Virus record (IMG/VR): IMGVR_UViG_3300025162_000622
Coordinates: 1 to 31,239 of that record
Source of the DNA: a virus
Reading direction: 5' to 3' (one strand)
DNA: 31,239 nucleotides
This document shows positions 2,206 to 16,112 of this stretch, piece after piece. The notes under the pieces are model-generated. The model was not told the DNA's origin. It saw only the letters and a list, made by a program, of their open reading frames with translations, and searched no databases. The translations under genes were made by a program, and so were the position numbers. Within the stretch, counting starts at the first letter, position 1; the number at the start of each line of letters is the position of its first letter.

Positions 2206-2218
2206 ACGGGGGTTTACT

Positions 2219-3139
2219 CTATTGGTTGGAAATGACGGTAATTGTAGCTACGTTATCTTCGATGACCAGCTTCGTGAAGTAGAGACTCTCCAGAGGGTTG
2301 TCATCCCAGACTCCCCAACGATCCTTCTCCCGGTAGACCTTCCGGTACACCTTTGCCAGTGTCCAAAGAAAGTATCCTAGGGTCATCTTGGGATGAGGGG
2401 GTGCTAGCTTGTGACTCAAATAGGGAGAGACCGTGACCCTAGCTGTCTTTGAGAAGGGGTACCGAAGGTCAACCGTAAGATCCCTGACAGGGAGAAACCA
2501 ACTAGTACCATGAGGAATGATAGGATTTTCTTCCCAAGTCCTATTCAAATAGGTTCCAGAGATTACCTCTGTAGCCTGAGCTAGCTTCATCTTCCCCAGG
2601 GAAGCTACATTGACGTTCAGGTAGATGGTGAAGAATCTGTATGGATAAGTCAAATCCTTCGGGAAGTCTCTCCTGATAGGCATTGGCTTGTATCCACACT
2701 CCCTGATGGTTCTTTTCCAGGAGTAGGCAATCTTGGTAGGTTTCTTGAGCTTCGGTTCTTCCATCCCAAATAGGACTGATTGATTCACTTGTTCTGGGAT
2801 CACCTTACCTGTATCAAGGCTAACAGGGAGTCCAAGTGTTTCTACCTTGGTGTTGAGTGTGGGTTTTAGTCTCTCAATTTCAGATAGGATGGTTCTACTT
2901 ACTTCTTCTGGATTGGAGGTACCCACACTGATGTTTACACAAACAGGGAGTATGATCTCCGTTGAGGTTCCTGTTGGAACCTCTGGGATTTCTACTTTGG
3001 TAGGTTCTTCAGGAGGAACCTCCGAGACACCTTTGAAGGAGCAATTGAAAGTATCTCCTTCAATTCCTTCTACCTCTACTACAGGAGGATTCCCAGTAAT
3101 GTTCATTCCAGAATTCAACAGTCTATCTACTTCGTCCAT
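2219..3139 (-). CDS. Unrecognised 306-residue protein
   Basis: First gene of the leftward unit. The ATG at 3139 is preceded on the minus strand by AAGGTGTAGG, a reasonable ribosome-binding site. I do not recognise the family. The N-terminal half (residues about 1-135) is acidic and rich in Pro, Thr, Val and Ser (for example VPPEEPTKVEIPEVPTGTS) and looks like a low-complexity linker. The C-terminal half (about 136-306) is basic and aromatic, with segments such as YPYRFFTIYLNVNV and MTLGYFLWTLAKVYRKVYR, and looks like a folded domain. No signal peptide or transmembrane segment is evident. It ends 13 bases before the sce7726-like gene, so the three leftward genes probably share a transcript. 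A perfect TTGACA lies at 3205-3200 on the minus strand, but no good -10 box follows it. Confidence 0.8.
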   Translation of the reverse strand: MDEVDRLLNSGMNITGNPPVVEVEGIEGDTFNCSFKGVSEVPPEEPTKVEIPEVPTGTSTEIILPVCVNISVGTSNPEEVSRTILSEIERLKPTLNTKVETLGLPVSLDTGKVIPEQVNQSVLFGMEEPKLKKPTKIAYSWKRTIRECGYKPMPIRRDFPKDLTYPYRFFTIYLNVNVASLGKMKLAQATEVISGTYLNRTWEENPIIPHGTSWFLPVRDLTVDLRYPFSKTARVTVSPYLSHKLAPPHPKMTLGYFLWTLAKVYRKVYREKDRWGVWDDNPLESLYFTKLVIEDNVATITVISNQ

Positions 3140-3249
3140 ACCTACACCTTACACCTATCATGGGATTGTGAGTTCTGAATCTGGTTTCTGATATCCGTCT
3201 GTCAATGTCTCCCGATCCTTGTTAATAGTAGTAGTTAATGTTGATTGGG

Positions 3250-3265
3250 GATACCTTTAGGTATC
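3250..3265. repeat. Small inverted repeat next to the first 79-bp element
   Basis: GATACC and GGTATC form a perfect 6-bp inverted repeat around TTTA. It abuts the left end of the first 79-bp element. It could be an operator half-site pair or part of an RNA hairpin; too short to be sure. Confidence 0.4.
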
Positions 3266-3343
3266 ACCATCAACGAACACTTAAGCATCTACATCTACAT
3301 CAACATCTACTAGAGTGTCAGCAACTACTAGAACTAGTAGTAG
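3265..3343 (+). repeat. 79-bp dispersed repeat, copy 1, with four hexamer iterons
   Basis: It aligns without gaps to 4224-4302 with about nine mismatches. Inside lie four tandem hexamers at 3287-3310, ATCTAC, ATCTAC, ATCAAC and ATCTAC (consensus WTCWAC), followed by TAGAG. An inverted repeat CTACTA/TAGTAG with a GAAC spacer sits at 3325-3340. Related hexamers ATCAAC-ATTAAC occur on the opposite strand just upstream, around 3234-3245. Tandem short repeats near a palindrome are typical of initiator or regulator binding sites; the actual role is unknown. Confidence 0.75.
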
Positions 3344-3349
3344 GGCTGA

Positions 3350-3386
3350 GACACCTATCCGGGATACTGACAAAACCATAGGTGTC
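3350..3386. other. Hairpin with 9-bp perfect stem
   Basis: GACACCTAT (3350-3358) pairs with ATAGGTGTC (3378-3386) across a 19-base loop. No T-run follows, so it is not a standard intrinsic terminator. It lies directly right of the first 79-bp element. Confidence 0.5.
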
Positions 3387-3587
3387 AGTCTATGTGTCCT
3401 ATCAGGTTTCTATGTAGGTAGGTGTGTCTACAAAATCAAAAATCGACAGACTCGGTAGGTTGGCTGTTAGCGTAACAGAGGTTGAGAGCCCCTCTCCCCT
3501 GTCCTGAGACGAGGAGTGAGACCGACGCCCATTAGCAAGGAAGACCGACGTAACGGAAACCTGAAAAGGTGAATGTTGAAGGTCCAA

Positions 3588-3622
3588 GATGAAGAACTTC
3601 AATCTGTGGGAAGTTCTTCATC
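3588..3622. other. Hairpin with 12-bp perfect stem
   Basis: GATGAAGAACTT (3588-3599) pairs perfectly with AAGTTCTTCATC (3611-3622) around an 11-base loop. This is the longest perfect stem I found in the window. It has no flanking T-tract on either strand, so an RNA structural element or protein-binding site is more likely than a terminator. A second hairpin follows 23 bases later. Confidence 0.55.
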
Positions 3623-3645
3623 GAGGGTGGTCTAGCTGAGATGTT

Positions 3646-3668
3646 GTAGTCCCCCAGTAGGGGACTAC
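3646..3668. other. GC-rich hairpin with 9-bp stem
   Basis: GTAGTCCCC (3646-3654) pairs with GGGGACTAC (3660-3668) around CAGTA. It is very stable and close to the preceding 12-bp stem, supporting a folded RNA or compact control element. No T-run follows. Confidence 0.5.
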
Positions 3669-3942
3669 CTGGGGCTCTTGAACACAGGGGATACGAAAGT
3701 TGGATCTGGGTTGTCTCTGGTTGAAACCATGACAGTGCAGAACTTCATTGATCTTGACCTTCAAGGGCCGAAAACCCGCTGGGAAGGCACGGTAATGAAG
3801 TTTGTTGATTGTCATTGGGGAACAACCAAAGCCTACTTGGATTCTTCTGACTTGTTTCCGTGTGTTCAAAAAAATGCCCAAATTCTCGGAGTTATGAACC
3901 GAGAAGGAGGGATGGGTCAAATACCAAGCTTCACCCGCCCAT

Positions 3943-3979
3943 CGACCAGACCCGCACGCAAAGATGCCTTGTCTGGTCG
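3943..3979. other. Hairpin with 9-bp stem
   Basis: CGACCAGAC (3943-3951) pairs with GTCTGGTCG (3971-3979) around 19 bases. A possible neighbouring stem, GATGGG with CCCATC just upstream, partly overlaps it. This part of the region is richer in G+C than its flanks and reads like structured RNA rather than protein-coding sequence. Confidence 0.45.
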
Positions 3980-4223
3980 TCGGAAGGGGCTAGGGGACGG
4001 GTCAGTAACGATTGGGTCCCCCCGGCAGGTAACCTCCCGCTTCGACCACAGAATCTCAACCGAGATGCCCTATCGAGGGCTGCGAAGTCTCCAGAGCGGC
4101 ATATCCAAGGACCGGAGCCCCAGGGCCTCCGGGTGTAGGACTTCCGCTATCTGGTTCAGGGGTCGGGTGCCAGAACTAACCTCTTGCCGGTGCCCTCAAA
4201 TTCAACTGCTATCACTACCAGTA

Positions 4224-4302
4224 CACCATCAACCAACGCTTAAGCTTCTACATCTACTTCAACTTCTACTAGAGTTTCAGCAGCTACTAGTACTAGTAGT
4301 AT
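4224..4302 (+). repeat. 79-bp dispersed repeat, copy 2, with hexamers and perfect palindrome
   Basis: Second copy of the element at 3265-3343. The four hexamers are at 4246-4269 (TTCTAC, ATCTAC, TTCAAC, TTCTAC). The palindrome is perfect here, CTACTAGTACTAGTAG at 4284-4299. Differences from copy 1 fall mostly at the W positions of the hexamers and in the palindrome centre, so the pattern is kept more strictly than the exact bases. About 880 bp separate the copies. Confidence 0.75.
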
Positions 4303-4358
4303 CAACACTGACGTTGGCCTACACTGTAGGACTGTCAGTAACCCCGGTGATTGGAGGT

Positions 4359-4471
4359 CATCCGTCCTGAACCAACGGATGATACGGGAAGGTCTGGGGA
4401 GTGAGGCTCGGGAGCTTCCCTAGGGGTTTTGACCCCAGAGATCACCTAGTTGAAGGCTAAGACCAACTAGG
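4359..4471. other. Cluster of three hairpins before the rightward genes
   Basis: Three consecutive inverted repeats: CATCCGT/ACGGATG at 4359-4381; TCTGGGG/CCCCAGA at 4393-4439, which may hold smaller stems inside; and CCTAGTTG/CAACTAGG at 4445-4471. A T5 run at about 4483-4487 follows the last stem at a distance, so a weak rightward terminator is possible but unproven. They could equally form a leader RNA ahead of the first rightward gene at 4558. Confidence 0.45.
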
Positions 4472-4557
4472 CTCCAATCGAGTTTTTGGATGGATGATGT
4501 ACCTCTGGAGGCTAGGTCTCCGATAGGTGTTCTTTATCCTACAGGGGTAAGAGGCAC

Positions 4558-4869
4558 ATGGAGATACCAGCTAGGGGTACGCCCAACTTGAAGGGCCTTG
4601 CGGAGGATTGCTGGGCGATCCTCTTAGGGCAGGGTTATGTCATTTTTCCGGCTTCGGATCATGCAGCCCCAGCCCCCAGGGCAATTTTCCAGGGTCCTAG
4701 GAATTTCTCCCGGAGTTGGTCTGGGGATGTATGGGAACGGTTGGCAGTCCCTACCCTGGATTCCTTCCAGGCTCCTTGGACATCCCCAATCCCGACTCCT
4801 ATCCAACCCCCGACCTTCGATCAGGTCTATGCCCAGGTTCTCTACTTCAACCAGTCGATTTCAGGTTAA
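4558..4869 (+). CDS. Small unrecognised protein, first rightward gene
   Basis: 103 residues from ATG 4558. The start is preceded by GTAAGAGGCAC, close to the AACAGAGGC leader used before two later genes (22817 and 23804), which supports a true start. Codon choice resembles the neighbours. The protein is rich in Pro, Trp and aromatic residues (for example NFSRSWSGDVWERL) and has no recognisable domain or membrane segment. It ends 31 bases before the metallophosphoesterase gene. Function unknown. Confidence 0.55.
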   Translation: MEIPARGTPNLKGLAEDCWAILLGQGYVIFPASDHAAPAPRAIFQGPRNFSRSWSGDVWERLAVPTLDSFQAPWTSPIPTPIQPPTFDQVYAQVLYFNQSISG

Positions 4870-4900
4870 GAAATGACTCTCCCGTGGTAAACAGGTTACC

Positions 4901-5548
4901 ATGATCATCGGGCATTTCTCAGACCTACACGGGCATCTTGATCCCTTGCTGGAGAGCAAGGGAAATCCTGACCTGTGGGTCGCAACGGGAGACATCTTCC
5001 CAAATTTCACACGGGGTCATGCCCAGGTTGAAGTTGGATACCAAACCAAGTGGTTTTCCCTCCATGCACGGGATCTACTTCTCAGGTTGGATGGTGTCCC
5101 CCTCTTGTCCGTCCCAGGGAACCATGACTGGGTAGACTTTGCCAAGCTGCTCTCTCGGCATGGTCATCCAGCGTACTCAGTGACTCCCAAGGGAATTTAT
5201 CTCATGGGTCACAAGTTCGCTGGGTTCCCCAATATCCCAATCATCGCTGGTGAGTGGAACTATGAAGCACCCTCGGTGTACCTCGCTGCGTTGGTGAAGA
5301 TGACCATGGCAAGTAAACCAGACATTCTTGTCACTCATGCACCCCCGGATGGAATCTTGGATATGGGTGGTCCAGAGGGCCATACCGGAGGGATTGCAGC
5401 CCTGACTGGTGCTTTGGCTTATACTCACCATAACGTCAAGGTTCATCTATTCGGTCACATACATGAGGCGGGACAAGAGAGTGTGGAAGAGATGGGTATT
5501 CAGTTCTACAATGGCTCGATGGGGGTAAGATTCATCGAGATACCTTGA
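4901..5548 (+). CDS. Calcineurin-like metallophosphoesterase
   Basis: 215 residues, ATG start. It shows the full set of metal-binding motifs: SDLHG with D8 and H10, GDIFPN with D31, GNHDW with N74, H75 and D76, TH at 145-146, and GHIH at 185-188. These coordinate two metal ions in phosphodiesterases of this superfamily. It is much shorter than the SbcD-like protein at 23804 and lacks its C-terminal cap, so it is more likely a small phosphodiesterase or phosphatase. The substrate is unknown. Its stop overlaps the next start (ATGA), suggesting translational coupling to the clamp-loader genes. Confidence 0.9.
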   Translation: MIIGHFSDLHGHLDPLLESKGNPDLWVATGDIFPNFTRGHAQVEVGYQTKWFSLHARDLLLRLDGVPLLSVPGNHDWVDFAKLLSRHGHPAYSVTPKGIYLMGHKFAGFPNIPIIAGEWNYEAPSVYLAALVKMTMASKPDILVTHAPPDGILDMGGPEGHTGGIAALTGALAYTHHNVKVHLFGHIHEAGQESVEEMGIQFYNGSMGVRFIEIP

Positions 5549-6162
5549 TGGAAACCTCTGTTATTCTGTTTCACGGTCCCAATTCCAACAACATCTGTGT
5601 GAGTAGTGCTGAAAAGTACGGTCCACAGGTCTGTCCTCCATTAGGAGCCGAAGGGCTTACACGGCAGGAGGCAAGGGACGCTGTGAAGCTTCTCATGTCT
5701 CCCTCTGTAGGGGGCAAGGCTTCACTTGTTGTAGGCCCCTTGGAGGACTCCACACTGGGGAGTACCGACGTGCTCCTGAAGATTCTGGAGGAACCCTATC
5801 CTTCGGCCCCTCGGCTTTTCCTATGGACACGGGACTTGGGCTCAGTGTCTTTCACTATTCGCTCCCGGTGCCTGCATCAATGGTGTCCTGGAGTAGATGC
5901 AGTCTCGGACCTCACTGATGTAGCAACTGAGATGATAAGTTCTCTCCTACGGGAAGAGATTGCATCCATTGTGTTCATGGTCCTGGATGCCAAGGGAAGA
6001 GAAGAAGACCTACTCCGGGAGTGTGTTCGGTTGGTATCAGAGAAGGATTTTGCAAATCTCAAGGTCTTTTCATTCTGGGCAAGGGCCCGGAAACTTTTGA
6101 GGTCCGAAGCCAAGCTCACGGCTTCACAGGTGGTGTCCTGTTTCCTGGGTGATGGTCTATGA
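5548..6162 (+). CDS. holB: Clamp-loader delta'-like subunit (HolB-type)
   Basis: 204 residues from ATG 5548, overlapping the previous stop by one base (TGATG); a TTG codon at 5545 is in frame but the ATG is preferred. Residues around 75-110 hold the delta'/DnaX hallmark LLKILEEPY followed by FLW and TIRSRC, matching the LLKxLEEPP...TIxSRC segment of clamp-loader AAA+ domains (sensor 1/SRC). There is no Walker A, as expected for delta', which is a non-hydrolysing stator. At about 200 residues it is shorter than bacterial delta' (about 330) and probably keeps the AAA+ core and lid only. It precedes the delta gene. The call is firm as a clamp-loader subunit, less so as delta' specifically. Confidence 0.8.
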   Translation: METSVILFHGPNSNNICVSSAEKYGPQVCPPLGAEGLTRQEARDAVKLLMSPSVGGKASLVVGPLEDSTLGSTDVLLKILEEPYPSAPRLFLWTRDLGSVSFTIRSRCLHQWCPGVDAVSDLTDVATEMISSLLREEIASIVFMVLDAKGREEDLLRECVRLVSEKDFANLKVFSFWARARKLLRSEAKLTASQVVSCFLGDGL

Positions 6163-7133
6163 GCGAGGCTCCTCTTCTTCTGGTTTCCGGGTCAGATGAC
6201 TTTCGGAGAGAGCGTCTAGTACGTCAGGTACTCAAGCGACGGGTCTCTACAGGTTGGAATTCTGAAACCATCCAGGGGGATGACCCTGGATTGGAAACAG
6301 CACTGGCAACAATTGGTGTTCTCTTCGCTGAGAAGCGAGTGATCGTTGTTCAGCATCCTGAGAAGGCGTCCCTACCCATTCTCCGGGATCAGTTGGACAA
6401 CCCTAACCGGGATGTTCTCTTGGTGTTGAACCATGAGGGTGAAATCAAATCATCTTCTCTGTTCCACAAGAACTTCGTATCCAAGCTTCCGTCTGGGGTT
6501 ACCCAGAATTTCACTGAAGTACCTTCATACAAGGCAACCGAGAGTGCCTACCAATTCGTACAAGAAGAGGTCAAGTCTCTTGGCTACCAGATTGGAGAAG
6601 ATATTGCTCTGATGCTGGTACTGAGGATGGGCTCTGACCTTGGGATTCTCTCGTTCGAAATCCTGAAGGCATCTTTACTCACCAAGCCCGGTGAGTTTCT
6701 GACAATAAATACCTTCAAAGCTACCATGGCACCCCTCTTGGATCTGGGTGGGCAACCTCTCATGGATGCTATCTCCAGTGGGAACCTCAAGGTGACTCTG
6801 GCAGAGTTGAGACGTGTTCAACTCTATGGTGGGTCGGACCCAACCATTCGTATCTGTGGGGCATACCTAGCACCAGCATTCTTGAGATGGTTAGCTGCGG
6901 TACATCTCCATCAGTCCGGTGTGTCTTCCAAGAGTGCCGCCGAAAGAGCTTCGGCTAACCCGTGGTACTGGGAGAACAAAGTGCTCCCTCCTGCCCTCCG
7001 TTGGGGGTACAAGGGGTGTAGAATGCTAGTGGAGTCCGTAGCTGAAGCGCAGTCGTCTGTGTTCCGGGGGGCGTTGTCACCGTGGAACCTCCTAGAAACT
7101 GGGCTGATAAGGGCTTTTCGGGCCAAAGCATAG
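6159..7133 (+). CDS. holA: Clamp-loader delta-like subunit (HolA-type)
   Basis: 324 residues, ATG start overlapping the previous stop (ATGA). The N-terminus LLLVSGSDDFRRERLVRQV matches the start of bacterial HolA (LLYGxExFLxxE). ATIGVLFAEKRVIVV (about 50-64) lies where HolA has its clamp-opening loop (SLF in E. coli); here V54-L55-F56 would insert into the clamp. The middle and C-terminal helices (ISSGNLKVTLAELRRVQLYGG) fit the HolA collar region. Length is near that of bacterial delta. Known role: delta opens the sliding-clamp ring during loading. Its likely partners here are the delta'-like protein, the DnaX-like protein at the right edge and the clamp at 26120. Confidence 0.85.
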   Translation: MSEAPLLLVSGSDDFRRERLVRQVLKRRVSTGWNSETIQGDDPGLETALATIGVLFAEKRVIVVQHPEKASLPILRDQLDNPNRDVLLVLNHEGEIKSSSLFHKNFVSKLPSGVTQNFTEVPSYKATESAYQFVQEEVKSLGYQIGEDIALMLVLRMGSDLGILSFEILKASLLTKPGEFLTINTFKATMAPLLDLGGQPLMDAISSGNLKVTLAELRRVQLYGGSDPTIRICGAYLAPAFLRWLAAVHLHQSGVSSKSAAERASANPWYWENKVLPPALRWGYKGCRMLVESVAEAQSSVFRGALSPWNLLETGLIRAFRAKA

Positions 7134-7151: not shown

Positions 7152-7235
7152 TGCTTCCCTTATTGACTCCGAAGGGGTAATCCTCGGAAGCATAGTGGTC
7201 TTCCGTGGTGTGGGTTTATGGGGGATGCACCCCCA
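7152..7235 (+). promoter_or_regulatory. Leader hairpins upstream of the reductase gene
   Basis: In the 140-base gap before the reductase, TGCTTCC (7152-7158) pairs with GGAAGCA (7186-7192), with a possible inner stem TCCGA/TCGGA. Further on, TGGGGG (7219-7224) pairs with CCCCCA (7230-7235) around ATGCA. No T-run follows the second stem, so a terminator is not clear. The elements could control reductase expression or separate it from the clamp-loader genes. I saw no recognisable cobalamin riboswitch core. Confidence 0.35.
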
Positions 7236-7273
7236 CTTCCACCAATCACCACTTTCAAATCGCAGGTAGTCTC

Positions 7274-8359
7274 ATGTTGAGAACTGGCGAAGTCGCCCCT
7301 CTATCATCTGAAACCATGTCTGAAAGACATTCCTCAAGCTACTTGAATACGTATGAGTTCCCTAATGTGCTTAGTGAGTTCGTCTACGTCAGAACCTACA
7401 GTAGGTGGATGGAAGAAAAGGCTCGACGGGAGTTCTACCCAGAGTCAGTTCGAAGGTATACCAGTAACATCTTCAAGGGAAAGCCAGTTCCCCCCAGTAT
7501 CACACAGGAATGTGAGCAAGCTATCCTGGATATGGATGTGATGCCATCCATGCGAGCTCTCTGGGCAGCGGGCACAGCGATGGAGAGGGATAACACGACT
7601 GGCTACAACTGTCTCGGGTCAGAGACAGAGTTCATCACACAACAAGGTGTCCGTAAGTTCTCTGACTTTAGGGACGGGGATAGTGTCACTGTTTTAACAC
7701 ATACAGGGTCTTGGAAGCCTGCAATTGTTCACAGTTATGGGCAACAGCAGTTGTTCAATATCACATTTGTTCGTGGACGTTCAACCTACACTGTTCGTGC
7801 TACACAGGATCACCAGTGGATTCTGGAAGATGGGGGTAGGACAAATAATCTCAAGGTGAAGGATCAGATCCTACGCACCCCTAAAATGGTTGAGGGGTGT
7901 TGGGACTGGGATGCTTTCACTGTGAAAGATATCCAGAAGTCCTCGGTCGAGACGGTGTGGTGCCTGGAAGTGGAAGACGACCATTCCTTCGTCCTTCCCA
8001 ATGGTATTGTGACCGGGAACTGTAGTTTCTTACCCATAGACAACCTGAAGGCATTTGCAGAAGTCCTTTACATTCTCATGTGTTTCCACCCGGACACAAT
8101 GGTCAAGACCAAGGTTGGGGACAAGAGGATCTCTGAGATCACTCCCGAGGATGAGGTTGCCACCTACATCTTGGAGACAGGCAAGACTACCTACATCAAA
8201 CCAGAACATATCATGTGTAACCCCACCATTACATCCCCTAAGCTCCGTCTCACCTTTGATGATGGGCATGATGTGACGTGTACGGAGGACCATCTATTTT
8301 ACACACATAACAGGGGGTGGGTGAAGGCTGTTGATCTCACTGAGGATGATGAACTGTGA
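7274..8359 (+). CDS. nrdJ: Class II ribonucleotide reductase, N-terminal fragment with intein 1 and split-intein N-half
   Basis: 361 residues from ATG 7274 (CAGGTAG lies upstream; GTG 7205 and ATG 7316 are alternatives). Residues 1-112 match the N-terminus of monomeric adenosylcobalamin-dependent reductases of the Lactobacillus RTPR type (VLSEFVYVRTYSRW, MPSMRALWAAGTA, TTGYN). Residues 113-249 are a mini-intein. Residues 250-269 resume the extein (CSFLPIDNLKAFAE...), whose Cys corresponds to the first redox-active cysteine of the family. Residues 270-361 are the N-half of a second, split intein, which ends at the stop. The stop overlaps the GTG of the endonuclease gene (GTGA). An active enzyme would need cis-splicing of intein 1 and trans-splicing with the product of 9141-12038. 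Confidence 0.9.
   Translation: MLRTGEVAPLSSETMSERHSSSYLNTYEFPNVLSEFVYVRTYSRWMEEKARREFYPESVRRYTSNIFKGKPVPPSITQECEQAILDMDVMPSMRALWAAGTAMERDNTTGYNCLGSETEFITQQGVRKFSDFRDGDSVTVLTHTGSWKPAIVHSYGQQQLFNITFVRGRSTYTVRATQDHQWILEDGGRTNNLKVKDQILRTPKMVEGCWDWDAFTVKDIQKSSVETVWCLEVEDDHSFVLPNGIVTGNCSFLPIDNLKAFAEVLYILMCFHPDTMVKTKVGDKRISEITPEDEVATYILETGKTTYIKPEHIMCNPTITSPKLRLTFDDGHDVTCTEDHLFYTHNRGWVKAVDLTEDDEL
7610..8020 (+). mobile_element. Intein 1: mini-intein at the redox cysteine of the reductase
   Basis: 137 residues. It starts with Cys (CLGSETEF), has a block B-like TVRATQDHQW, and ends with block F-like VEDDHSFVLPNGIVTGN followed by extein Cys. Removal joins TTGYN to CSFLP. There is no endonuclease domain. 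The penultimate residue is Gly instead of the usual His, which occurs in some active inteins but can slow Asn cyclisation. The boundaries follow from the extein alignment and are clear. Confidence 0.88.
8081..8356 (+). mobile_element. Intein 2, N-terminal half of a split intein (IntN)
   Basis: 92 residues beginning with Cys after extein ...YILM: CFHPDTMVKTKVGDKRI is block A, and DDGHDVTCTEDHLFYT is block B. It ends with GWVKAVDLTEDDEL, where contiguous inteins normally enter the endonuclease domain. The frame then stops. The matching C-half lies at 9141-9251 behind the endonuclease gene. The insertion point is the conserved LM/CGTGVGFS of reductases. Confidence 0.88.
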
Positions 8360-9144
8360 ACAGCAGGGTTTGGAATTACTCTGTCTATAGGCTTACCTGT
8401 CAGGAGACAGGCAAAGCTTATGTAGGGGTGACTCGAAAGCATCCTGAAAAGCGATGGCAGGAACATCTCTATGCTGCCGCTCGTGGGGCATCAACCATTC
8501 TTCATCGGGCGATTCGTAAACACGGTTTTGATTCATTCTATCAAGAGGTACTTCATACGGGTACCGGAACACATGAAGAGATGTTTGCTGCTGAAGTGGC
8601 ATACATCTCTCAGTGTAATACCCTAGTACCTAGAGGATACAACCTCACAAGAGGGGGAGAGGGCACTTCTGGTCACAAGATGTCGGCTGAAGGTAAGGCA
8701 CGTTTGTCTGCCCTCCACAAGGGCATGAAAGCATCTCCTGAGACTCGGGCCAAGATGAGCCAGACCCGTAAGGGTCGTCCATTTTCAGAAGCAGCTAAGT
8801 TGGCATCTTCGGAATCCCAACGGGACTCCAAGAATCACCGTTATGGGAAGCACAACACGGAAGAGTGGAAGGCTGTCCTACGGGAGAAGAACTCTGGGGC
8901 AGGAAACCCATTTCATGGATGTCATCATTCTGAAGAATCCAAAATTCAGATTCGTCAGTCGTTACAAGCCCGTGATTTTTCAGGGTCTCACAACCCTTCT
9001 GCACGCACCGTGGTTGCTCATGGTGTGACCTATTCAACTATGAAGGATGCAATGACGGGTCTTAACCTTAAAGGTTACGGTGCCCTCTATCGTTTGTTGT
9101 CTGATAACAATTCCGGGGTTTCCATCGTGGAGAAGAATCAATGA
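8356..9144 (+). CDS. Free-standing GIY-YIG homing endonuclease inside a split-intein gap
   Basis: 262 residues, GTG start at 8356 overlapping the stop of the reductase N-fragment (GTGA). Its own stop overlaps the ATG of the C-fragment (ATGA). The N-terminus SVYRLTCQETGKAYVGVT is a GIY-YIG module (VYR...YVG variant), followed by the basic KRWQEHL helix and AEVAYISQ with its Glu, then GYNLTRGGEG. The middle has NUMOD3-type DNA-binding repeats (MSAEGKARLSALHKG, SPETRAKMSQTRKG, SEESKIQIRQSL). The C-terminal part resembles a NUMOD1-like segment (VVAHGVTYSTMKDAM). Such enzymes cut intein- or intron-free alleles and spread the element. Here it occupies the normal endonuclease position of the intein but as a separate protein. 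Confidence 0.9.
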   Translation: MNSRVWNYSVYRLTCQETGKAYVGVTRKHPEKRWQEHLYAAARGASTILHRAIRKHGFDSFYQEVLHTGTGTHEEMFAAEVAYISQCNTLVPRGYNLTRGGEGTSGHKMSAEGKARLSALHKGMKASPETRAKMSQTRKGRPFSEAAKLASSESQRDSKNHRYGKHNTEEWKAVLREKNSGAGNPFHGCHHSEESKIQIRQSLQARDFSGSHNPSARTVVAHGVTYSTMKDAMTGLNLKGYGALYRLLSDNNSGVSIVEKNQ

Positions 9145-9251
9145 GACTTGTCAAGAAGGAAAAGATCGAACAGGATGGGCTCCGTTACTGGGACCTTTCT
9201 ATTCCTGGTACACACAATTACATCCTCTCCAATGGGGTAATTGTACACAAT
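9141..9251 (+). mobile_element. Intein 2, C-terminal half of the split intein (IntC)
   Basis: 37 residues with its own ATG. YWDLSIPGTHNYILSNG followed by VIVHN is a textbook block F/G ending in His-Asn, followed by extein Cys (CGTGVG). With the 92-residue IntN it makes a 129-residue intein lacking an endonuclease domain. The start codon overlaps the endonuclease stop, so IntC would be translated by coupling. Trans-splicing with IntN is strongly implied because both exteins are conserved up to the junctions. Confidence 0.88.
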
Positions 9252-12038
9252 TGTGGGACAGGGGTTGGGTTTTCTGTTGAGAGAACATTCGTGAACAATC
9301 TTCCTGTTGTTGCCTTCCCTACTGAAAACATCCCGATCACGCATATCATCGAAGACTCTACTGAGGGTTGGGCTGATGCTTTGTATGTAGCAATGACGGA
9401 AGCTCACAGGGGGAACAGGGTTCATTTCGACTATTCCCAGATTCGTGAGAAAGGTGCAAGGCTGAAGACCAAAGGAGGAAGGGCATCAGGCCCCATGCCT
9501 CTCAGGAAGGTCTTTAACTTCATTCGTGATACCGTAGGTAAGGCAGCAGGTAGGTGTTTGAGGCCCATTGAATGTCATGACATTGTCTGCATGGAAGCAG
9601 AGATTGTCATGGTGGGTGGTTTCCGCAGGGCCTCCCTCATCTCTTTCTCCGACCTGGATGATCTGGAGATGCGTCAGGCCAAGGACTTCACCAAGGGAGA
9701 TGTGCCCAAGATTCGGTACATGGCAAACAATTCTGTGTACTACGAAGGTAGGCCGACAGAGGAACAGTTCTGGACAGAGTGGGATTCCTTAGCCAAGTCT
9801 GGTTCTGGGGAACGGGGTTTCTACATTGCTTCTGACTCTTCCATCAAGAAGCGTGGGGGACACAAGTTCCGGTGCAATCCGTGCGGGGAGATCAAGCTTC
9901 GTTTCCGCAGGGCCTTGGACCCCTGGACTGGTGCCGGTGGGGCCGGGCAGTTCTGCAATCTTACCGCAGCCGTGATGCGAGCCAACGATACGATTCAGAC
10001 AATGGCTCGGAAGATTCGGTTGGCTACATGGTTGGGTTGTGTCCAGTCAACCTATACTCATTTCCCGTACCTACGTTCAGGTTGGACTGAACTCTGTAAT
10101 GAGGATCAGTTGATCGGAGTAGACATCACGGGTCAGTGTGACAACCCAAAGCTGTCCAACAACCCTACTGCGATGCTCTATTTCAATCAGGTTGCTAGAG
10201 AGACTGCCAAGATCGCTTCAGATACCCTTGGAATCAACTACCCGGCAGCAATCACCTGTGGGAAGCCTTCTGGCAACTGCCGACCCTGGTATGCCCTGAC
10301 CACAACAAATGTAGGATTGCTTACACTTCAGGATCTTTTTGAGCACCACCCTAACGGCCAGGATTGGGCACCTTTGCAGCAGGACATTCATGCAATTCGT
10401 CCTGGTGAGGATGCACAGAAGATCCTTCGCACCTATGATAATGGGGAAAGCCCTCTGGTTAGGTTGAATCTCCTTTATGGGCTGTCAGTGGAAGCCACAC
10501 CCAACCACAAGTGGTTTGTTAAATACAGGGTCGGTCCAGGCAGGAAGACCACTGACGTTCATGACTGGGTGCCTGCTAAGGACATCCGTCCGGGAGACGT
10601 GCTGGAAGTCAAACTGGGTACTTACACACGGGAGGACCATGCCAAGCTGTCTACTTTCAATTCTCGTGCGTGGCACATGGCAACCAGTGCCAAGCCTATC
10701 CGTACCCCAGGGGAACTGAACGAGGACATGTGTTGGTTCCTTGGGTACTTGTGGGGAGATGGGGCAATGTCCCCTGGGGGTTTCCGTTTCCGGTTCACTG
10801 ACGAGCATGTTTGGAATCTTACCAAGGTCCAACGTGTGCTCATGGATCAGTTTGGGCTGGAGTCCACCCTAGCAAACCCCAAGGGACGCAAGGACTATAC
10901 GTTGGACTTTGCATCCGTGCATTTGTGGCACTGGTTGCTGGAGAATGGGGTGTTCAAGTATAATGCAGAGGGTGGTGTGGATATCATTCCTCGGGTGGTG
11001 CGGTCTTCCTCCAGAGATGACATCATTGCGTTTATGGCGGGTATGTTGGACTCCGATGGATGGGCTGGATACAAGCGTCAAGGGCTTGGGTCTTTCACGT
11101 TCACTACTGCAAGCTCTCTGTTGGCACGGCATCTTCAGGATGTGGCTTGGGCCGTAGGGTTGGGGGTTGGCCGGTCCCTGAACAGTCTCGGGTCTAGTTT
11201 TCAGACAAGACGGGAAATGTATCTATTGGGTTGCAGTTCCCAGGTTGATCCCGGAGCGTTTGATGTGTTGCTGCGGAACAGTAACAAAGTTCAACGGGTA
11301 GCAGAGGGTGGACGGTTCAAGGACTGGGAATGGCGTCAGGCCAAGCGGGAATACCACGTTGGTCGGGTGGTGTCTGTTGAGGAAACCCTTCCGGTTCCTA
11401 CATTTGATATTGAAGTGGATGCAGACCATTGGTACTACGCTGGATCAGTGAAAAGCCATAACTCCTCCCAGTTCCTTGACTGTGCCTCTGGGTTCCATCC
11501 TCGGTATTCCAAGTACTACTTCCGTCACGTTCGGATTTCCTCCAAGGACCCCCTCTATCATCTCATCAAGGCTCAGGGAGTACCTCTCTACAAAGAGAAC
11601 AATCAGGAGCACCTACCGGATGATCAGGTGGATGTGTGGGTAGCTCGGTTCCCTGTCAAGGCACCCGAAGGTGGAATGACTAGGAACGATGAGACTGCTA
11701 TCCAGGAGTGTGAGAGGTATCTTCATGTTATGAGGACGTGGTGTGGGGAGCTTGGACACAACCAGTCTGCCACGATCTACGTCAATGATGATGAATGGGG
11801 TATTGTTGGGAAGTGGGTATGGGAACACTTCGATGAGATTACGGGCCTTACCTTCATGCCTCACGATCCGTCTGCATACCGTCTAGCTCCTTATGTGGAG
11901 ATTACGGCAGAGGAGTATGAACAGGCGTTGTTTGAGATGCCCAAGATTGACTTCTCTCTTCTCTCTCAGTATGAAGCAGAGGACAATACTGAGGGTGCCC
12001 AAAGTTACGCTTGTGTTTCAGGGGCATGTGAGCTTTAG
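9141..12038 (+). CDS. nrdJ: Class II ribonucleotide reductase, C-terminal fragment with split-intein C-half and intein 3
   Basis: 965 residues, ATG start. Residues 1-37 are the C-half of the split intein. The extein starts at CGTGVGFSVER. NPCGE with C248 is the thiyl-radical cysteine motif, and FCNL with C272 supplies the second redox cysteine, both as in RTPR-type class II enzymes. GKPSGN ends at residue 379, a full LAGLIDADG intein spans 380-774, and the extein resumes with SSQFLDCASG. The C-terminus YACVSGACEL carries the cysteine pair that re-reduces the active site. The combined extein of both fragments is about 665 residues, slightly shorter than RTPR. Function: reduction of ribonucleotides to deoxyribonucleotides with adenosylcobalamin, supplying dNTPs for phage replication. 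Confidence 0.92.
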   Translation: MRLVKKEKIEQDGLRYWDLSIPGTHNYILSNGVIVHNCGTGVGFSVERTFVNNLPVVAFPTENIPITHIIEDSTEGWADALYVAMTEAHRGNRVHFDYSQIREKGARLKTKGGRASGPMPLRKVFNFIRDTVGKAAGRCLRPIECHDIVCMEAEIVMVGGFRRASLISFSDLDDLEMRQAKDFTKGDVPKIRYMANNSVYYEGRPTEEQFWTEWDSLAKSGSGERGFYIASDSSIKKRGGHKFRCNPCGEIKLRFRRALDPWTGAGGAGQFCNLTAAVMRANDTIQTMARKIRLATWLGCVQSTYTHFPYLRSGWTELCNEDQLIGVDITGQCDNPKLSNNPTAMLYFNQVARETAKIASDTLGINYPAAITCGKPSGNCRPWYALTTTNVGLLTLQDLFEHHPNGQDWAPLQQDIHAIRPGEDAQKILRTYDNGESPLVRLNLLYGLSVEATPNHKWFVKYRVGPGRKTTDVHDWVPAKDIRPGDVLEVKLGTYTREDHAKLSTFNSRAWHMATSAKPIRTPGELNEDMCWFLGYLWGDGAMSPGGFRFRFTDEHVWNLTKVQRVLMDQFGLESTLANPKGRKDYTLDFASVHLWHWLLENGVFKYNAEGGVDIIPRVVRSSSRDDIIAFMAGMLDSDGWAGYKRQGLGSFTFTTASSLLARHLQDVAWAVGLGVGRSLNSLGSSFQTRREMYLLGCSSQVDPGAFDVLLRNSNKVQRVAEGGRFKDWEWRQAKREYHVGRVVSVEETLPVPTFDIEVDADHWYYAGSVKSHNSSQFLDCASGFHPRYSKYYFRHVRISSKDPLYHLIKAQGVPLYKENNQEHLPDDQVDVWVARFPVKAPEGGMTRNDETAIQECERYLHVMRTWCGELGHNQSATIYVNDDEWGIVGKWVWEHFDEITGLTFMPHDPSAYRLAPYVEITAEEYEQALFEMPKIDFSLLSQYEAEDNTEGAQSYACVSGACEL
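10278..11462 (+). mobile_element. Intein 3: full-length intein with LAGLIDADG endonuclease at the GKPSGN site
   Basis: 395 residues, from Cys after GKPSGN to KSHN before SSQFLDC. The two LAGLIDADG helices are FLGYLWGDG (intein residues about 154-162) and FMAGMLDSDG (about 252-261). Each keeps its acidic residue, so the endonuclease may be active. Block B contains EATPNHKW; block F is FDIEVDADHWYYAGS. The GKPSGN/(S/T)SQ position is a recurrent intein insertion site in reductases. Confidence 0.92.
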
Positions 12039-12073: not shown

Positions 12074-12541
12074 GTGCCCCTACCTATCCTCCAAGCTGAA
12101 GGTGTCTTTCTTCACAATGCTGGGATTTTCACCATTGAGAACAATGGTGAAACCCAGACACTCAATCCTATTCTGGATGTCCTGGAGAAGTATGAGGAAG
12201 TCTTTGTACTGACTTCACACGTACCTTCTTCTATCTCTGGGCAATTCCCTATACTGTGGGGTTTTGGTTGTTGTAAGTGGCAACCTACTGGTAACTGCCC
12301 GTATGGGCATCACTTGAACCCCTGTAACCTCTACTTCAGAGAATCCAAAGGTAAACTCTCACTCACAGATGGTGTGTGGTTGTTGGACTCTAAGCCTGTT
12401 TTTGATCTTCAGGCAATGTCAGGTCATGTCTGTAGAGTAATGCTATGTCCGTCCAAGTGGAGTTCCACGATGCCTGTAGAGGGGGGTGAAGGACTCGTGG
12501 AAGACCTCATGCAGATGCTTAGTACTTTCGGTCATCAGTAG
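12074..12541 (+). CDS. Unrecognised Cys-rich protein
   Basis: 155 residues, GTG start at 12074, 35 bases after the reductase stop. The TAG stop is eight bases before the helicase start. I do not recognise the family. The middle holds a Cys/His cluster, GCCKWQPTGNCPYGHHLNPC, which could bind zinc. The first 70 residues contain alternating beta-like stretches (VFLHNAGIFTIENNG, EEVFVLTSHVPSS). It has no membrane segment. The position between reductase and helicase suggests a role in nucleotide or DNA metabolism, but this is only context. Confidence 0.7.
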   Translation: MPLPILQAEGVFLHNAGIFTIENNGETQTLNPILDVLEKYEEVFVLTSHVPSSISGQFPILWGFGCCKWQPTGNCPYGHHLNPCNLYFRESKGKLSLTDGVWLLDSKPVFDLQAMSGHVCRVMLCPSKWSSTMPVEGGEGLVEDLMQMLSTFGHQ

Positions 12542-12548
12542 GTTGAAG

Positions 12549-15500
12549 ATGTACTTCTCAGGCAAAGTCCACAGTGTAATCTTTGAGAACATAGCTCAGG
12601 ATTTCTACATCCTACGCATGATTCTCGACCGATCTCAACCGGAAGGTCTCAATTTGGAGGGGGTCAAACAACCTACAAATATCGTCCGGGGGTATGTCCA
12701 TGGGATGCCTGTGAAGGTGGGTACTTGGTTTGGCTTTGAAGCCGAATGGGGGGAACACCCTCAGTACGGGAAGCAGTTGGGGGTCACCAAGGCACCCGTC
12801 CTTCCCCAGGGTTGGGATATAGACACAGCTTCCAAAGTTTTGATGTCAGCCGGTGTGGGGCCGAGAATCATAGAAGACATCCTGAATTACTATGGTGATG
12901 ACTTCCTGGAGGCACTCAATGATCGGGAGAAGATTCAAGCTGTTCCTGGTATGTCTCCTTTTACGGCTGCGTATGTAGTCCAGAGATGGCAGACCACTAG
13001 GGCACAGTTCCTCACCCTAGACTTCCTGAATGACCTGGGTGTACCCCAACACCGTATCCGGCAGATATGGTCTGTCTTCGGGGATACAGCACATGAAGTT
13101 CTAGCAAACAATCCATGGGAGTTGGTTCGGTTAGATGGCTTCACCTTCCAGGAGGGGGATGCTATCGCAGAGAGGCTCAAGCTTCCTCTCACGGCAGAGA
13201 ACCCCTTGAGGGTCCGGGGAGCGGTGCTCTATGCTGTCCGGTCTGCCAAGGGTCATGGGCATCTGTTTGTGACTACTTCTGAGATCCTGTCCCAGGTCCG
13301 GGCCATGATTGAGGGTGTGGAAGACCGTGTGATTGCCAAGGCGATCCTGAGTGCCAAGGAAGACTCCCTGGTAATCCTGGACAAGACTACCCGACCGGGG
13401 GTTGTCGCTCTGTATGAGCCCTGGTTCTACTCGATGGAGAGCAAATCCGCAGAGTTTGTCTTGGAGCGTAAAGTTTCGGCCAAGGGGTCTAGGTCTGTCC
13501 AGGCTATGTTGAGGTTCTGTCAGGATGTTCTTCCAACCACAGAGTTGAATCTTAGGGGCAACCTTGAGAATATCCTTGCATCTCCAGAGTTGGTTGGGAA
13601 AACACAACTTTCGGCTACACAGATTACGGGGGTTGTGAACGCACTGATAGAGCCAGTCTCGGTTTTGACAGGTCTCCCAGGTACAGGGAAAACTACCTCG
13701 ATGGTTCTGATGGTTCGGGTGCTTCAGGAAGCTGGAGTTAAGTTCCTGCTACTGGCACCTACCGGGATTGCAGCAAAGAAGATTTCATCTATTACAGGGT
13801 CCCCTGCCTACACTATCCATCGAGCTTTCCAGGCCGAAGGTGTCAAAGAGGAAGAAGAATCTGGGTATGTAGGGGTCAAGAGGAAGCCAGGAGAACGGAT
13901 TGTCACAGATGGGTCTGGTGAACGCTGGGGGTATGATGAAGCAAATCCTCATTCGGCCGAAGTTATCCTTGTAGATGAGTCTTCAATGGTGGACCAACAT
14001 CTGATGTACAGGATTCTTTCTTGTACTAGAAAAGATGCAAGGTTGGTTTTCATTGGGGATGCCGCACAGCTACCTTCAGTGGGTCCTGGAAATGTTCTGA
14101 GGGACCTGATTGCTAGTAACCTTTTCCCTACAGTGGCCCTCACAGAGATTTTCCGACAGGAAGATACCTCGGATATCATCCATGCGTCCCATGACATCTT
14201 CAACGGAAGAATCCCTAAGACAGATGTACGCTCTGACTTCTCTCTGGTGGATATGTCTGGGTCATCTTCTATAGAAGAGGCAACTCTCAAAGCTATCGTT
14301 CGGCTAGTGCGTGCGTTGTTTGAGAAGAAGGTCAATTTTCAGGTCTTGTCTCCTCGGCACGCTGGAGATGTTGGGGTTACAAATCTCAATGCAAACCTCC
14401 GGGAAGAGATCAACCCTAGAGCAAGGGGTTTGCATGAGATGAAGATAGGGGTTGAGGTACTTCGTGAAGGGGACCGGATCATGGTTGTGAAGAACGACTA
14501 CGATCTAGGTATCTATAATGGGGACATGGGGAAGGTGAACCGTCTGGACAAGAAGAATGGGGAAGTGGAGATAAAGGTCTACGGTCCCCCAGTCTTGCAC
14601 GTCAAAGTACCATTCAAGAAAGTCCCAACCGTACTTCGGCTTGCTTATGCTGTCACTGTCCACAAGTGTGTACACCCTGACACCATTGTTGAGACACAAG
14701 AAGGAATTCTACCGATTAGAGATATCTGTCCAAACGGTGTGATTGCCACACCTAGGGGGAAAGCATACTATAGGGGGAAGACCATAAATCCTGTGTGTGA
14801 GGCTGTAAGGGTTACTACGGAGGATGGTTATTCTCTGGTTGTCACCCCAGAACATGGTTTGGATGTATGGGACGGTGTGGGGTACTCTCGTAAAGAATCT
14901 GGGGCTATCCTTCCGGGTGATATACTCAGGATGCCTTATGGTGTGGGTTGTGACGTGGATACCCTAGCTCGGCTTCCAGACCCCACATCCGGTGATGTTA
15001 GAGAACAAGTTTTTTGTGTCCCACCTGAAGTGACAAGTGATGTAGCAGAGTTCCTGGGTTTGTTTGTCGCAGACGGAACTCTCTTTGATCGTGGGTTCAG
15101 GTTGTCTAAACGTCATGAGGACGTAGCTAATCGTTTCTCAGAGCTATCCCAACAATTGTTTGGGGTAGAGCCAAAACGGTTCTTCACGCTGGGGGCACAC
15201 CATGTTGAGGTAAATTCAACCTACCTCGCTCGGTGGCTACGTTCCATAGGGGGCCTTGACCCCAATGCAAAGATGATCCCGAAATGTGTACTCAGGTCCC
15301 CAGAGGTCATTCAGCGTAAGTTTATTCGGGGAGTCATTGAAGACGGAACAGTAAATGTGAAGAATGGGTCTCTCGACCATATTGAATGGTCTACGGGTTT
15401 CGCAGGCATAGCAGAGTACCTATCCGTGATGTTACTCAGGGCAGGCATCTCTGTTTCCATGTGTTCCCGTAAGGGGTTGAACTACCTCTATATTTACGGC

Positions 15501-16112
15501 TACAGAGCCGCTTTGTTTGGTGAAAGGGTAGGGTTTATCTCTTCTTTCAAACAGAAGAGATTGCAGGACTACAAAATTCCCCGTAATGACCGTGAGTTCA
15601 TTCCTGTTTCCGAGACTGAAGCTCGTGCCTTGCGGAAAACCTATCGGCCTCTCCTTGGGGAATCCTCTTGTGGCAATCTTCTCACTAGGAGAAGAATGAG
15701 TGCATGGTTGCTTTCTCAGCTTGAGGGTCAGTCCTCTGACTTGTTGCTGTCCCTCCGAGACCGGGCAGTAGCTTTCCATCACACGGTTGTATCTTCCGTC
15801 ACACCAGAAGAATGTGAATCTATGTGTGTGGAAGTCCCGGAAGGTCACCAGTTCAGACAGAATGGTTTTGCTGGATGGAATAGTCAGGGAAATGAGTGGG
15901 ATGTTATCATCATGCCCATTGTTGACAGTTTTGCTCATCAGTTACAACGGAATCTTCTCTATACAGGTGTGACCCGAGCACGTCAGAAGGTTATCCTTCT
16001 AGGAACTCCTTCGGCACTTTCCCGTGCTGTGATGAATGACAAGGAAGGTCTCCGAAACACGTTCTTCCTAGACCGTCTATTACAAGGGCAGAACTCGCTT
16101 CCGATGGGGTAA
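12549..16112 (+). CDS. recD2: RecD2-like SF1B DNA helicase interrupted by an intein
   Basis: 1187 residues from ATG 12549, chosen because MYFSGKVHSVIFEN matches the start of the RecD2 N-terminal domain; an in-frame ATG at 12486 would overlap the upstream gene. Residues about 130-240 are the helix-hairpin-helix region (IEDILNYYGDDFLEAL, NNPWELVRLDGFTFQEGD). Motif I is TGLPGTGKTT (G375-T383). Motif II is VILVDESS with D476-E477. Later come GDAAQLPSVGPG (motif III) and ALTEIFRQ (motif IV). Motif V is split by the intein: AVTVHK then SQGNEWD. Motif VI is LLYTGVTRARQKV. Extein length is about 780 residues, normal for RecD2. Likely a 5'-3' helicase acting in recombination or replication restart. 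Confidence 0.92.
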   Translation: MYFSGKVHSVIFENIAQDFYILRMILDRSQPEGLNLEGVKQPTNIVRGYVHGMPVKVGTWFGFEAEWGEHPQYGKQLGVTKAPVLPQGWDIDTASKVLMSAGVGPRIIEDILNYYGDDFLEALNDREKIQAVPGMSPFTAAYVVQRWQTTRAQFLTLDFLNDLGVPQHRIRQIWSVFGDTAHEVLANNPWELVRLDGFTFQEGDAIAERLKLPLTAENPLRVRGAVLYAVRSAKGHGHLFVTTSEILSQVRAMIEGVEDRVIAKAILSAKEDSLVILDKTTRPGVVALYEPWFYSMESKSAEFVLERKVSAKGSRSVQAMLRFCQDVLPTTELNLRGNLENILASPELVGKTQLSATQITGVVNALIEPVSVLTGLPGTGKTTSMVLMVRVLQEAGVKFLLLAPTGIAAKKISSITGSPAYTIHRAFQAEGVKEEEESGYVGVKRKPGERIVTDGSGERWGYDEANPHSAEVILVDESSMVDQHLMYRILSCTRKDARLVFIGDAAQLPSVGPGNVLRDLIASNLFPTVALTEIFRQEDTSDIIHASHDIFNGRIPKTDVRSDFSLVDMSGSSSIEEATLKAIVRLVRALFEKKVNFQVLSPRHAGDVGVTNLNANLREEINPRARGLHEMKIGVEVLREGDRIMVVKNDYDLGIYNGDMGKVNRLDKKNGEVEIKVYGPPVLHVKVPFKKVPTVLRLAYAVTVHKCVHPDTIVETQEGILPIRDICPNGVIATPRGKAYYRGKTINPVCEAVRVTTEDGYSLVVTPEHGLDVWDGVGYSRKESGAILPGDILRMPYGVGCDVDTLARLPDPTSGDVREQVFCVPPEVTSDVAEFLGLFVADGTLFDRGFRLSKRHEDVANRFSELSQQLFGVEPKRFFTLGAHHVEVNSTYLARWLRSIGGLDPNAKMIPKCVLRSPEVIQRKFIRGVIEDGTVNVKNGSLDHIEWSTGFAGIAEYLSVMLLRAGISVSMCSRKGLNYLYIYGYRAALFGERVGFISSFKQKRLQDYKIPRNDREFIPVSETEARALRKTYRPLLGESSCGNLLTRRRMSAWLLSQLEGQSSDLLLSLRDRAVAFHHTVVSSVTPEECESMCVEVPEGHQFRQNGFAGWNSQGNEWDVIIMPIVDSFAHQLQRNLLYTGVTRARQKVILLGTPSALSRAVMNDKEGLRNTFFLDRLLQGQNSLPMG
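14667..15881 (+). mobile_element. Intein 4: LAGLIDADG intein in the helicase, at TVHK/SQG
   Basis: 405 residues. It begins with Cys after AVTVHK (CVHPDTIVETQEG, block A) and has block B VVTPEHGLDVW. The LAGLIDADG helices are FLGLFVADG (intein residues about 129-137) and FIRGVIEDG (about 219-227). Block F is CVEVPEGHQFRQNGFAGWN before extein Ser. The penultimate residue is Trp instead of His. Excision restores the conserved TVHKSQGNEWD motif, which is essential for helicase function, so splicing must occur for activity. Confidence 0.92.

What the first reader, a model, noticed from the sequence alone, without database searches (positions are those of the whole stretch)
8081..9254. Fractured ribonucleotide reductase: split intein with a coupled GIY-YIG endonuclease gene in the gap
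The reductase frame stops after an intein N-half (blocks A and B), and a GIY-YIG/NUMOD3 endonuclease gene follows. A new ATG then begins an intein C-half (block F ending HN) that leads into the conserved CGTGVGFS extein. The start/stop pairs overlap at both joints (GTGA and ATGA), so three proteins come from one transcript and two of them should trans-splice. Split inteins in fractured phage genes with an endonuclease in the gap are known from metagenomic work, but the pairing of a GIY-YIG enzyme with a split reductase intein at this site is, to my knowledge, uncommon. The arrangement preserves homing without an in-frame endonuclease.
Basis: partly seen in the sequence, partly recalled or inferred. 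Interest (0 to 1): 0.85.

Follow-up and report, generated by a model that had tools for sequence, protein, structure and literature searches.

The report
Split reductase intein with GIY-YIG gene
An uncultured phage makes its DNA-building-block enzyme from two separately encoded pieces that should be stitched together by a split self-splicing protein, with a DNA-cutting gene parked in the gap; related phages show that this kind of cassette jumps between phages as a unit and exists in split, partly fused and unsplit forms.

Summary
A class II ribonucleotide reductase gene (nrdJ) is broken by a split intein: IntN 8081-8356, a GIY-YIG/NUMOD3 endonuclease gene 8356-9144, and IntC 9141-9251. All splicing residues are present, and the joints overlap as GTGA and ATGA. 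The two halves match complementary parts of one intein profile. The endonuclease model matches the I-TevI catalytic domain. All 24 close IMG/VR relatives have an empty site.

This is not a one-off. Seven other viral contigs carry an intein at exactly this site; the gap is visible in six, and all six carry GIY-YIG. In five the endonuclease is fused in frame to IntN and only IntC is separate. Two codons downstream is a sister family. There the split cassette is 98.9% identical between phages whose exteins are about 79% identical, a homing footprint. One phage has the same intein uninterrupted and without the endonuclease.

The organisation itself is known: fractured genes, and AceL NrdHF with GIY-YIG (PMC7891396). 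The window is therefore a new member. The IntN-GIY-YIG fusions and the natural split/unsplit pair are the new part. Splicing and cleavage are inferred, not shown.

The parts
7205..7609 (+). nrdJ N-extein part 1 (GTG start; alternative ATG at 7274)
   Evidence: RNR_Alpha Pfam 2.7e-9; tblastn to 24 viral relatives
7610..8020 (+). cis mini-intein 1 (137 aa), inserted before the Cys of NCSFLPID
   Evidence: intein_Cterm 6e-8 at residues 251-273; absent from all relatives
8021..8080 (+). nrdJ N-extein part 2, CSFLPIDNLKAFAEVLYILM
8081..8356 (+). split intein N-half (92 aa, CFHPDT...TEDH...EDDEL), stop TGA at 8357-8359
   Evidence: Intein_splicing profile 10-90, intein_Nterm 2e-8, NrdJ-1 in the PDB 1e-5
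8356..9144 (+). GIY-YIG homing endonuclease gene (262 aa)
   Evidence: TIGR01453 7.9e-24; Pfam; Foldseek to I-TevI 1mk0, TM 0.86 over the target
8377..8622 (+). GIY-YIG catalytic domain, with Y11, Y22, R34, E80 and N96 retained
8773..8871 (+). NUMOD3 DNA-binding motif (best stretch)
9129..9132 (+). GGAG Shine-Dalgarno-like site 8 nt before the IntC ATG
   Evidence: -6.4 kcal/mol; 15% of background positions are as good
9141..9251 (+). split intein C-half (37 aa, MRLVKK...THNYILSNGVIVHN)
   Evidence: Intein_splicing profile 123-155; intein_Cterm 7.5e-10
9252..10277 (+). nrdJ C-extein part 1, starting with +1 Cys (CGTGVGFS)
   Evidence: TIGR02505 RTPR 1.5e-40 for the ORF, PDB 1L1L 1e-11
10278..11462 (+). 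cis intein 3 (395 aa) with LAGLIDADG motifs, PSGN|SSQ site
   Evidence: LAGLIDADG_3 1.6e-4; absent from all relatives
11463..12038 (+). nrdJ C-extein part 2, ending CVSGACEL

Best explanation
This is a mobile, fractured class 1 split intein in a phage class II reductase gene. One transcript is read as three coupled ORFs by termination and reinitiation at GTGA and ATGA, helped by a GGAG site before IntC (inferred). IntN and IntC associate into one HINT domain and trans-splice M-C to rebuild the reductase (inferred from motifs, intact residues, empty-site relatives and a natural uninterrupted version of a sister intein). The GIY-YIG enzyme in the gap cuts intein-less nrdJ near the GTGVGFS codons, so that repair copies the whole IntN-endonuclease-IntC cassette into the recipient (inferred for the window; footprint seen in sister cassette L052/L054). 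Intein halves and endonuclease can be exchanged separately over time (suggestive).
For: Complementary halves of one intein profile, with C1, TxxH, D, HN and +1 Cys intact. 24 of 24 relatives have an empty site, with the reductase contiguous through it. Six same-site inteins with a visible gap from unrelated contigs (GC 32-58%) all have a separate, ATG-started IntC and a GIY-YIG enzyme. A Shine-Dalgarno-like site precedes most IntC starts. Natural cis version L055: 139 aa, one frame, about 5 base differences from the L052 halves, endonuclease gene missing. Its model is a HINT fold (pLDDT 94; top Foldseek hit NrdJ-1 split intein 8ubs). L052 and L054 cassettes are 98.9% identical over 1198 bases against 78-80% in the flanking exteins, with edges at the intein ends. 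The endonuclease fold and catalytic residues match I-TevI.
Against: No splicing or cleavage experiment exists for any member. The window is a 31-kb fragment with no near relative of its own cassette, so its own mobility is not shown. The Shine-Dalgarno signal in the window is only moderate. A single indel at 8356 would turn the window into the IntN-GIY fused form, so the first joint rests on one contig.
Confidence: 0.88

Rival explanations
1. The reductase works as a gene in pieces: the two fragments associate without splicing, as reported for a phage reductase split by a homing endonuclease insertion (Friedrich et al. 2007, as summarised in PMC10448857).
For: The gene is in pieces, and non-spliced two-piece phage reductases exist.
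Against: Both pieces end or begin with complete intein halves with all catalytic residues. The natural unsplit sister version keeps the same intein. An unspliced product would leave 92 and 37 foreign residues in the GTGVGFS loop, next to conserved sequence.
Confidence: 0.05
2. Assembly or sequencing indels have broken one continuous bifunctional intein.
For: Metagenomic contig. One indel at the first joint would yield the fused form seen in L026, L028, L030, L031 and L036.
Against: The second joint (separate ATG IntC overlapping the endonuclease stop) recurs in all six independent same-site contigs with a visible gap. L029 and L052/L054 also have a separate endonuclease ORF.
Confidence: 0.04
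3. RNA-level removal: a group I intron carrying a GIY-YIG gene sits inside a contiguous intein.
For: GIY-YIG/NUMOD3 enzymes are typical of group I introns, and TIGR01453 is named for them.
Against: No Rfam intron match anywhere in the window. The endonuclease ORF overlaps the flanking ORFs at both ends, so there is no room for a ribozyme core outside the coding sequence. IntC has its own conserved ATG and start region in every member.
Confidence: 0.02
4. A decaying parasite: the intein no longer splices and the reductase is a relic.
For: The gene carries three inteins, and a helicase next door a fourth. NCBIfam RTPR score is below its cutoff.
Against: All intein and endonuclease catalytic residues are intact and the exteins are open throughout. 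The reductase Cys motifs NPC, FCN and CVSGACEL are retained.
Confidence: 0.04

Closest known systems
AceL NrdHF split intein (PMC7891396, PDB 6ZGQ)
   Same: Fractured phage-like reductase gene, split at the canonical endonuclease site, GIY-YIG gene in the gap; trans-splicing was shown there.
   Different: There: class Ib beta-subunit gene and a class 3 intein (Ala1, MCT motif). Here: nrdJ and a class 1 intein (Cys1, +1 Cys). Weak sequence match (E 0.007).
Fractured genes of Dassa et al. 2009 (NAR 37:2560; cited in PMC3653736; full text not held)
   Same: Split intein with a free-standing endonuclease gene between the halves, in phage DNA-metabolism genes including nrdA and nrdJ.
   Different: From memory of the abstract, about half of those loci carry Vsr-like endonucleases. 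I could not check whether any has GIY-YIG, or this site.
NrdJ-1 split intein (PDB 8UBS, 9OMB)
   Same: Nearest solved intein by sequence to IntN and nearest fold for the L055 unsplit intein.
   Different: From general knowledge it sits at a different nrdJ site (NPC|SEI).
Klebsiella phage KP13-7 nrdA (OP617745, locus L037)
   Same: Isolated phage: IntN ORF, GIY-YIG ORF, then an IntC ORF overlapping the GIY-YIG end; not annotated as such.
   Different: nrdA rather than nrdJ, different site, IntN 31% identical to the window's.
I-TevI / Seg GIY-YIG homing endonucleases
   Same: Catalytic fold (1MK0, TM 0.86 over the target) and NUMOD3-type tail.
   Different: Those are intron-borne or free-standing; here the gene lies between intein halves. 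A 2006 survey (PMC1564403) found none in inteins.

Membership tests
Naturally split class 1 intein | N-half with Cys1 and block B TxxH | tested here: met
   CFHPDT and TEDH; intein_Nterm above cutoff
Naturally split class 1 intein | C-half ending HN followed by Cys, Ser or Thr | tested here: met
   NGVIVHN|C; intein_Cterm above cutoff
Naturally split class 1 intein | Halves complementary, broken at the canonical endonuclease site | tested here: met
   Profile positions 10-90 and 123-155; the break follows the same DDEL segment as in NrdJ-1
Naturally split class 1 intein | Trans-splicing activity | not testable with these tools
   Needs co-expression
Fractured gene (Dassa type) | Conserved enzyme broken by a split intein, intact in relatives | tested here: met
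   24 of 24 relatives contiguous at the site
Fractured gene (Dassa type) | Endonuclease gene between the halves | tested here: met
   8356-9144
GIY-YIG homing endonuclease | Catalytic motif residues (GIY, YIG, Arg, Glu, Asn) | tested here: met
   Y11, Y22, G24, E80 and N96 invariant, R34 present
GIY-YIG homing endonuclease | I-TevI-like catalytic fold | tested here: met
   Foldseek 1mk0 E 2.9e-5, TM 0.86 over the target
GIY-YIG homing endonuclease | Site-specific cleavage of the intein-less allele and homing | not testable with these tools
   Footprint seen only for sister cassette L052/L054
Class II RNR (RTPR/NrdJ) | NCBIfam TIGR02505 equivalog score | tested here: inconclusive
   139 bits for the C half and 27 for the N half, cutoff 340; best family, and PDB 1L1L is the only solved relative
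Group I intron | Ribozyme core | tested here: not met
   No Rfam hit

The most novel reading that the evidence does not exclude
A site-specific family of nrdJ inteins has adopted GIY-YIG endonucleases and occurs in three convertible states: uninterrupted mini-intein (L055), three-ORF fractured intein (window, L029, L052, L054), and a form in which the GIY-YIG enzyme is an in-frame extension of IntN while only IntC is separate (L026, L028, L030, L031, L036). The cassette moves between phages as a unit, and intein and endonuclease histories can part. This would be the first natural intein with a fused GIY-YIG domain, and a natural series for how split inteins arise or revert.
Probability: 0.6. 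Interest if true: 0.62.

Novelty: new member of a known kind. Interest (0 to 1): 0.47.

Why it matters
Split inteins are key protein-engineering tools, and how they arise is debated. This locus and its relatives offer natural split and unsplit versions of nearly the same intein, a direct footprint of whole-cassette transfer, and IntN-GIY-YIG fusions. A 2006 survey reported no GIY-YIG enzymes in inteins, and the only published GIY-YIG split-intein gap I found is AceL NrdHF. The pairs give testable new split inteins and a test of whether an endonuclease inserts into, or is lost from, a working intein.

Tried and rejected
Single-protein scans of IMG/VR with the window endonuclease or IntN found no relative; degenerate DNA patterns for the HN|CGTG and LM|CFHP junctions were needed. 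L033-L035 matched the looser pattern by chance. The same pattern in 84,980 GTDB genomes gave only chance matches, none in nrdJ, so no bacterial home for this intein was found. Nucleotide searches of 50,697 phage records found no near copy of the window gene or of the L052 cassette (only 128 bases of segB). A group I intron was rejected. A -1 frameshift fusing IntN to the endonuclease in the window was considered; no slippery heptamer is visible and an overlapping GTG start is present, so reinitiation is preferred. GC content does not mark the cassette as foreign (about 49% for IntN and the endonuclease against 50-52% for most extein parts). The Dassa 2009 text is not in the library.

Full report
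WHAT IS THERE. The window is an IMG/VR virus record of 31,239 bases. Its genes include DNA-metabolism proteins (RecD2-like helicase, methyltransferase, exonucleases, polymerase processivity factor, primase). The reductase runs from 7205 to 12038 in two pieces. The N piece (7205-8359) ends with an intein N-half of 92 residues that begins CFHPDT, has block B as TEDH, and stops after EDDEL. The C piece (9141-12038) begins MRLVKK and reaches NGVIVHN, followed by CGTGVGFS. The two pieces match positions 10-90 and 123-155 of the same Pfam intein profile, and NCBIfam intein_Nterm and intein_Cterm above cutoff. Between them, overlapping both, is a 262-codon gene for a GIY-YIG/NUMOD3 endonuclease (TIGR01453 8e-24). 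Its AlphaFold model (pLDDT 82; 92-98 over nearly all of the first 100 residues) matches the I-TevI catalytic domain 1MK0 (TM 0.86 over the target), and the catalytic Tyr, Arg, Glu and Asn are kept.

THE GENE. The exteins are related to L. leichmannii class II RTPR (1L1L; TIGR02505 1.5e-40 but below its 340-bit cutoff). The same gene holds a mini-intein (7610-8020) and a LAGLIDADG intein (10278-11462). All three are absent from the 24 nearest IMG/VR relatives, whose exteins join without a gap at each site. At the split site the relatives read YILM|xGTGVGFS (or a close variant) with x = Q 15, C 5, M 2, A 1, N 1. The Cys that the intein needs at +1 is thus a tolerated, minority residue.

SAME-SITE INTEINS. 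A degenerate DNA pattern for HN[C/S/T]GTG found six further viral contigs with an intein ending at the same codon, and a pattern for LM|CFHP found another (L036, completed as L050). In the six with a visible gap, IntC is always a separate ATG-started ORF overlapping the stop of the upstream frame, and the enzyme is always GIY-YIG. L029 has three ORFs, like the window. L026, L028, L030, L031 and L036/L050 have the GIY-YIG enzyme fused in frame to IntN. L027 shows only the IntC end. These contigs range from 32% to 58% GC, so this is not one phage seen repeatedly. Sequence before the IntC ATG pairs with anti-Shine-Dalgarno better than most background positions in most members; in L026, L028 and L030 the site lies within the last codons of the fused endonuclease.

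A SISTER SITE SHOWS MOBILITY AND AN UNSPLIT FORM. Two codons downstream (LMNG|TGVGFS) another split intein has a separate GIY-YIG-type gene (L052-L054, L056; weak family score, TIGR01453 1.5e-9 below cutoff and one catalytic Arg replaced). L052 and L054 are 98.9% identical across the 1198-base cassette, but only 78-80% identical in the flanking exteins, with the change at the intein ends and a short tract beyond. This is the footprint expected of homing. In L055 the same intein, differing by about five bases in the shared halves, is one 139-residue frame with the endonuclease gene missing and a remnant matching its 3' end kept. The direction, loss or gain of the endonuclease, is not settled, though the retained remnant favours loss. 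The L055 contig begins at the IntN start, a typical assembly break at a shared sequence, but its private base differences argue against a chimera. Its model is a confident HINT fold nearest to the NrdJ-1 split intein.

HISTORIES. The window's intein halves are closest to L031 (IntN 57%, IntC 75%), yet its endonuclease is only 32% identical to L031's and groups weakly with the separate-gene enzymes of L029 and L052 (89/91 support). Forcing the window and L031 enzymes together is disfavoured (p 0.02). Forcing the fused inteins into one clade is also disfavoured (p 0.022). This suggests that the endonuclease has been exchanged while the intein stayed. The tests were chosen after seeing the trees and the proteins are short, so it is suggestive only.

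HOW IT LIKELY WORKS. Shown by sequence: intact split intein, intact endonuclease, overlapping joints, empty sites in relatives, transfer footprint in the sister cassette. Inferred: translational coupling, trans-splicing, cleavage of the empty allele and copying of the cassette by repair. The enzyme lies outside the intein polypeptide in the window but is part of IntN in five relatives, so the split intein apparently tolerates both.

COMPARISON. Fractured genes with split inteins were described in 2009 (Dassa et al.; text not held, known from citations and memory). AceL NrdHF is a published split intein with a GIY-YIG gene in its gap (PMC7891396). An isolated Klebsiella phage, KP13-7, has an unannotated example in nrdA. 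The window is therefore a new member of a known kind. I found no report of a GIY-YIG domain fused to an intein half; a 2006 survey stated none were known in inteins (PMC1564403). The library searched is partial, so this is a lead rather than a proof of novelty.

Noticed in passing
window 14667-15881 (within ORF 12486-16112): A RecD2-like helicase carries a 405-aa intein with LAGLIDADG-like motifs at VHK|C...WN|SQGNEW, a fourth intein in this fragment.
   Followed up: partly
L086 3251-3790; L084 2909-3457; L074 3233-3910: In three viral contigs, continuous terminase- or helicase-type inteins contain a nuclease gene (DUF559, E 1e-11 to 1e-12) in an overlapping alternative frame, so an endonuclease is encoded out of frame inside an open intein frame. 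This deserves its own study.
   Followed up: partly
L037 (Klebsiella phage KP13-7, OP617745) 1029-6559: nrdA of an isolated jumbo phage is fractured at least twice: one split intein with a GIY-YIG gene and a second with an unidentified gene at 5050-6021. The record annotates these as hypothetical proteins.
   Followed up: partly
L073 3001-6288 and L076: A split intein at the GVGFS site of a distant reductase has a different gap gene, Vsr-like by eye with no Pfam hit, so the site attracts other endonucleases too.
   Followed up: partly
L052 3305-3370: Before the GIY-YIG gene lies an inverted repeat (CTGTTCCGTT...AACGGAACAG) with TATAAATA in its loop, resembling a T4 late promoter in a hairpin; the window lacks this.
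   Followed up: no
L018, L023, L024, L025: Related nrdJ genes carry LAGLIDADG inteins at the catalytic NPC and FC cysteines, so the reductase active site is a repeated intein target.
   Followed up: no
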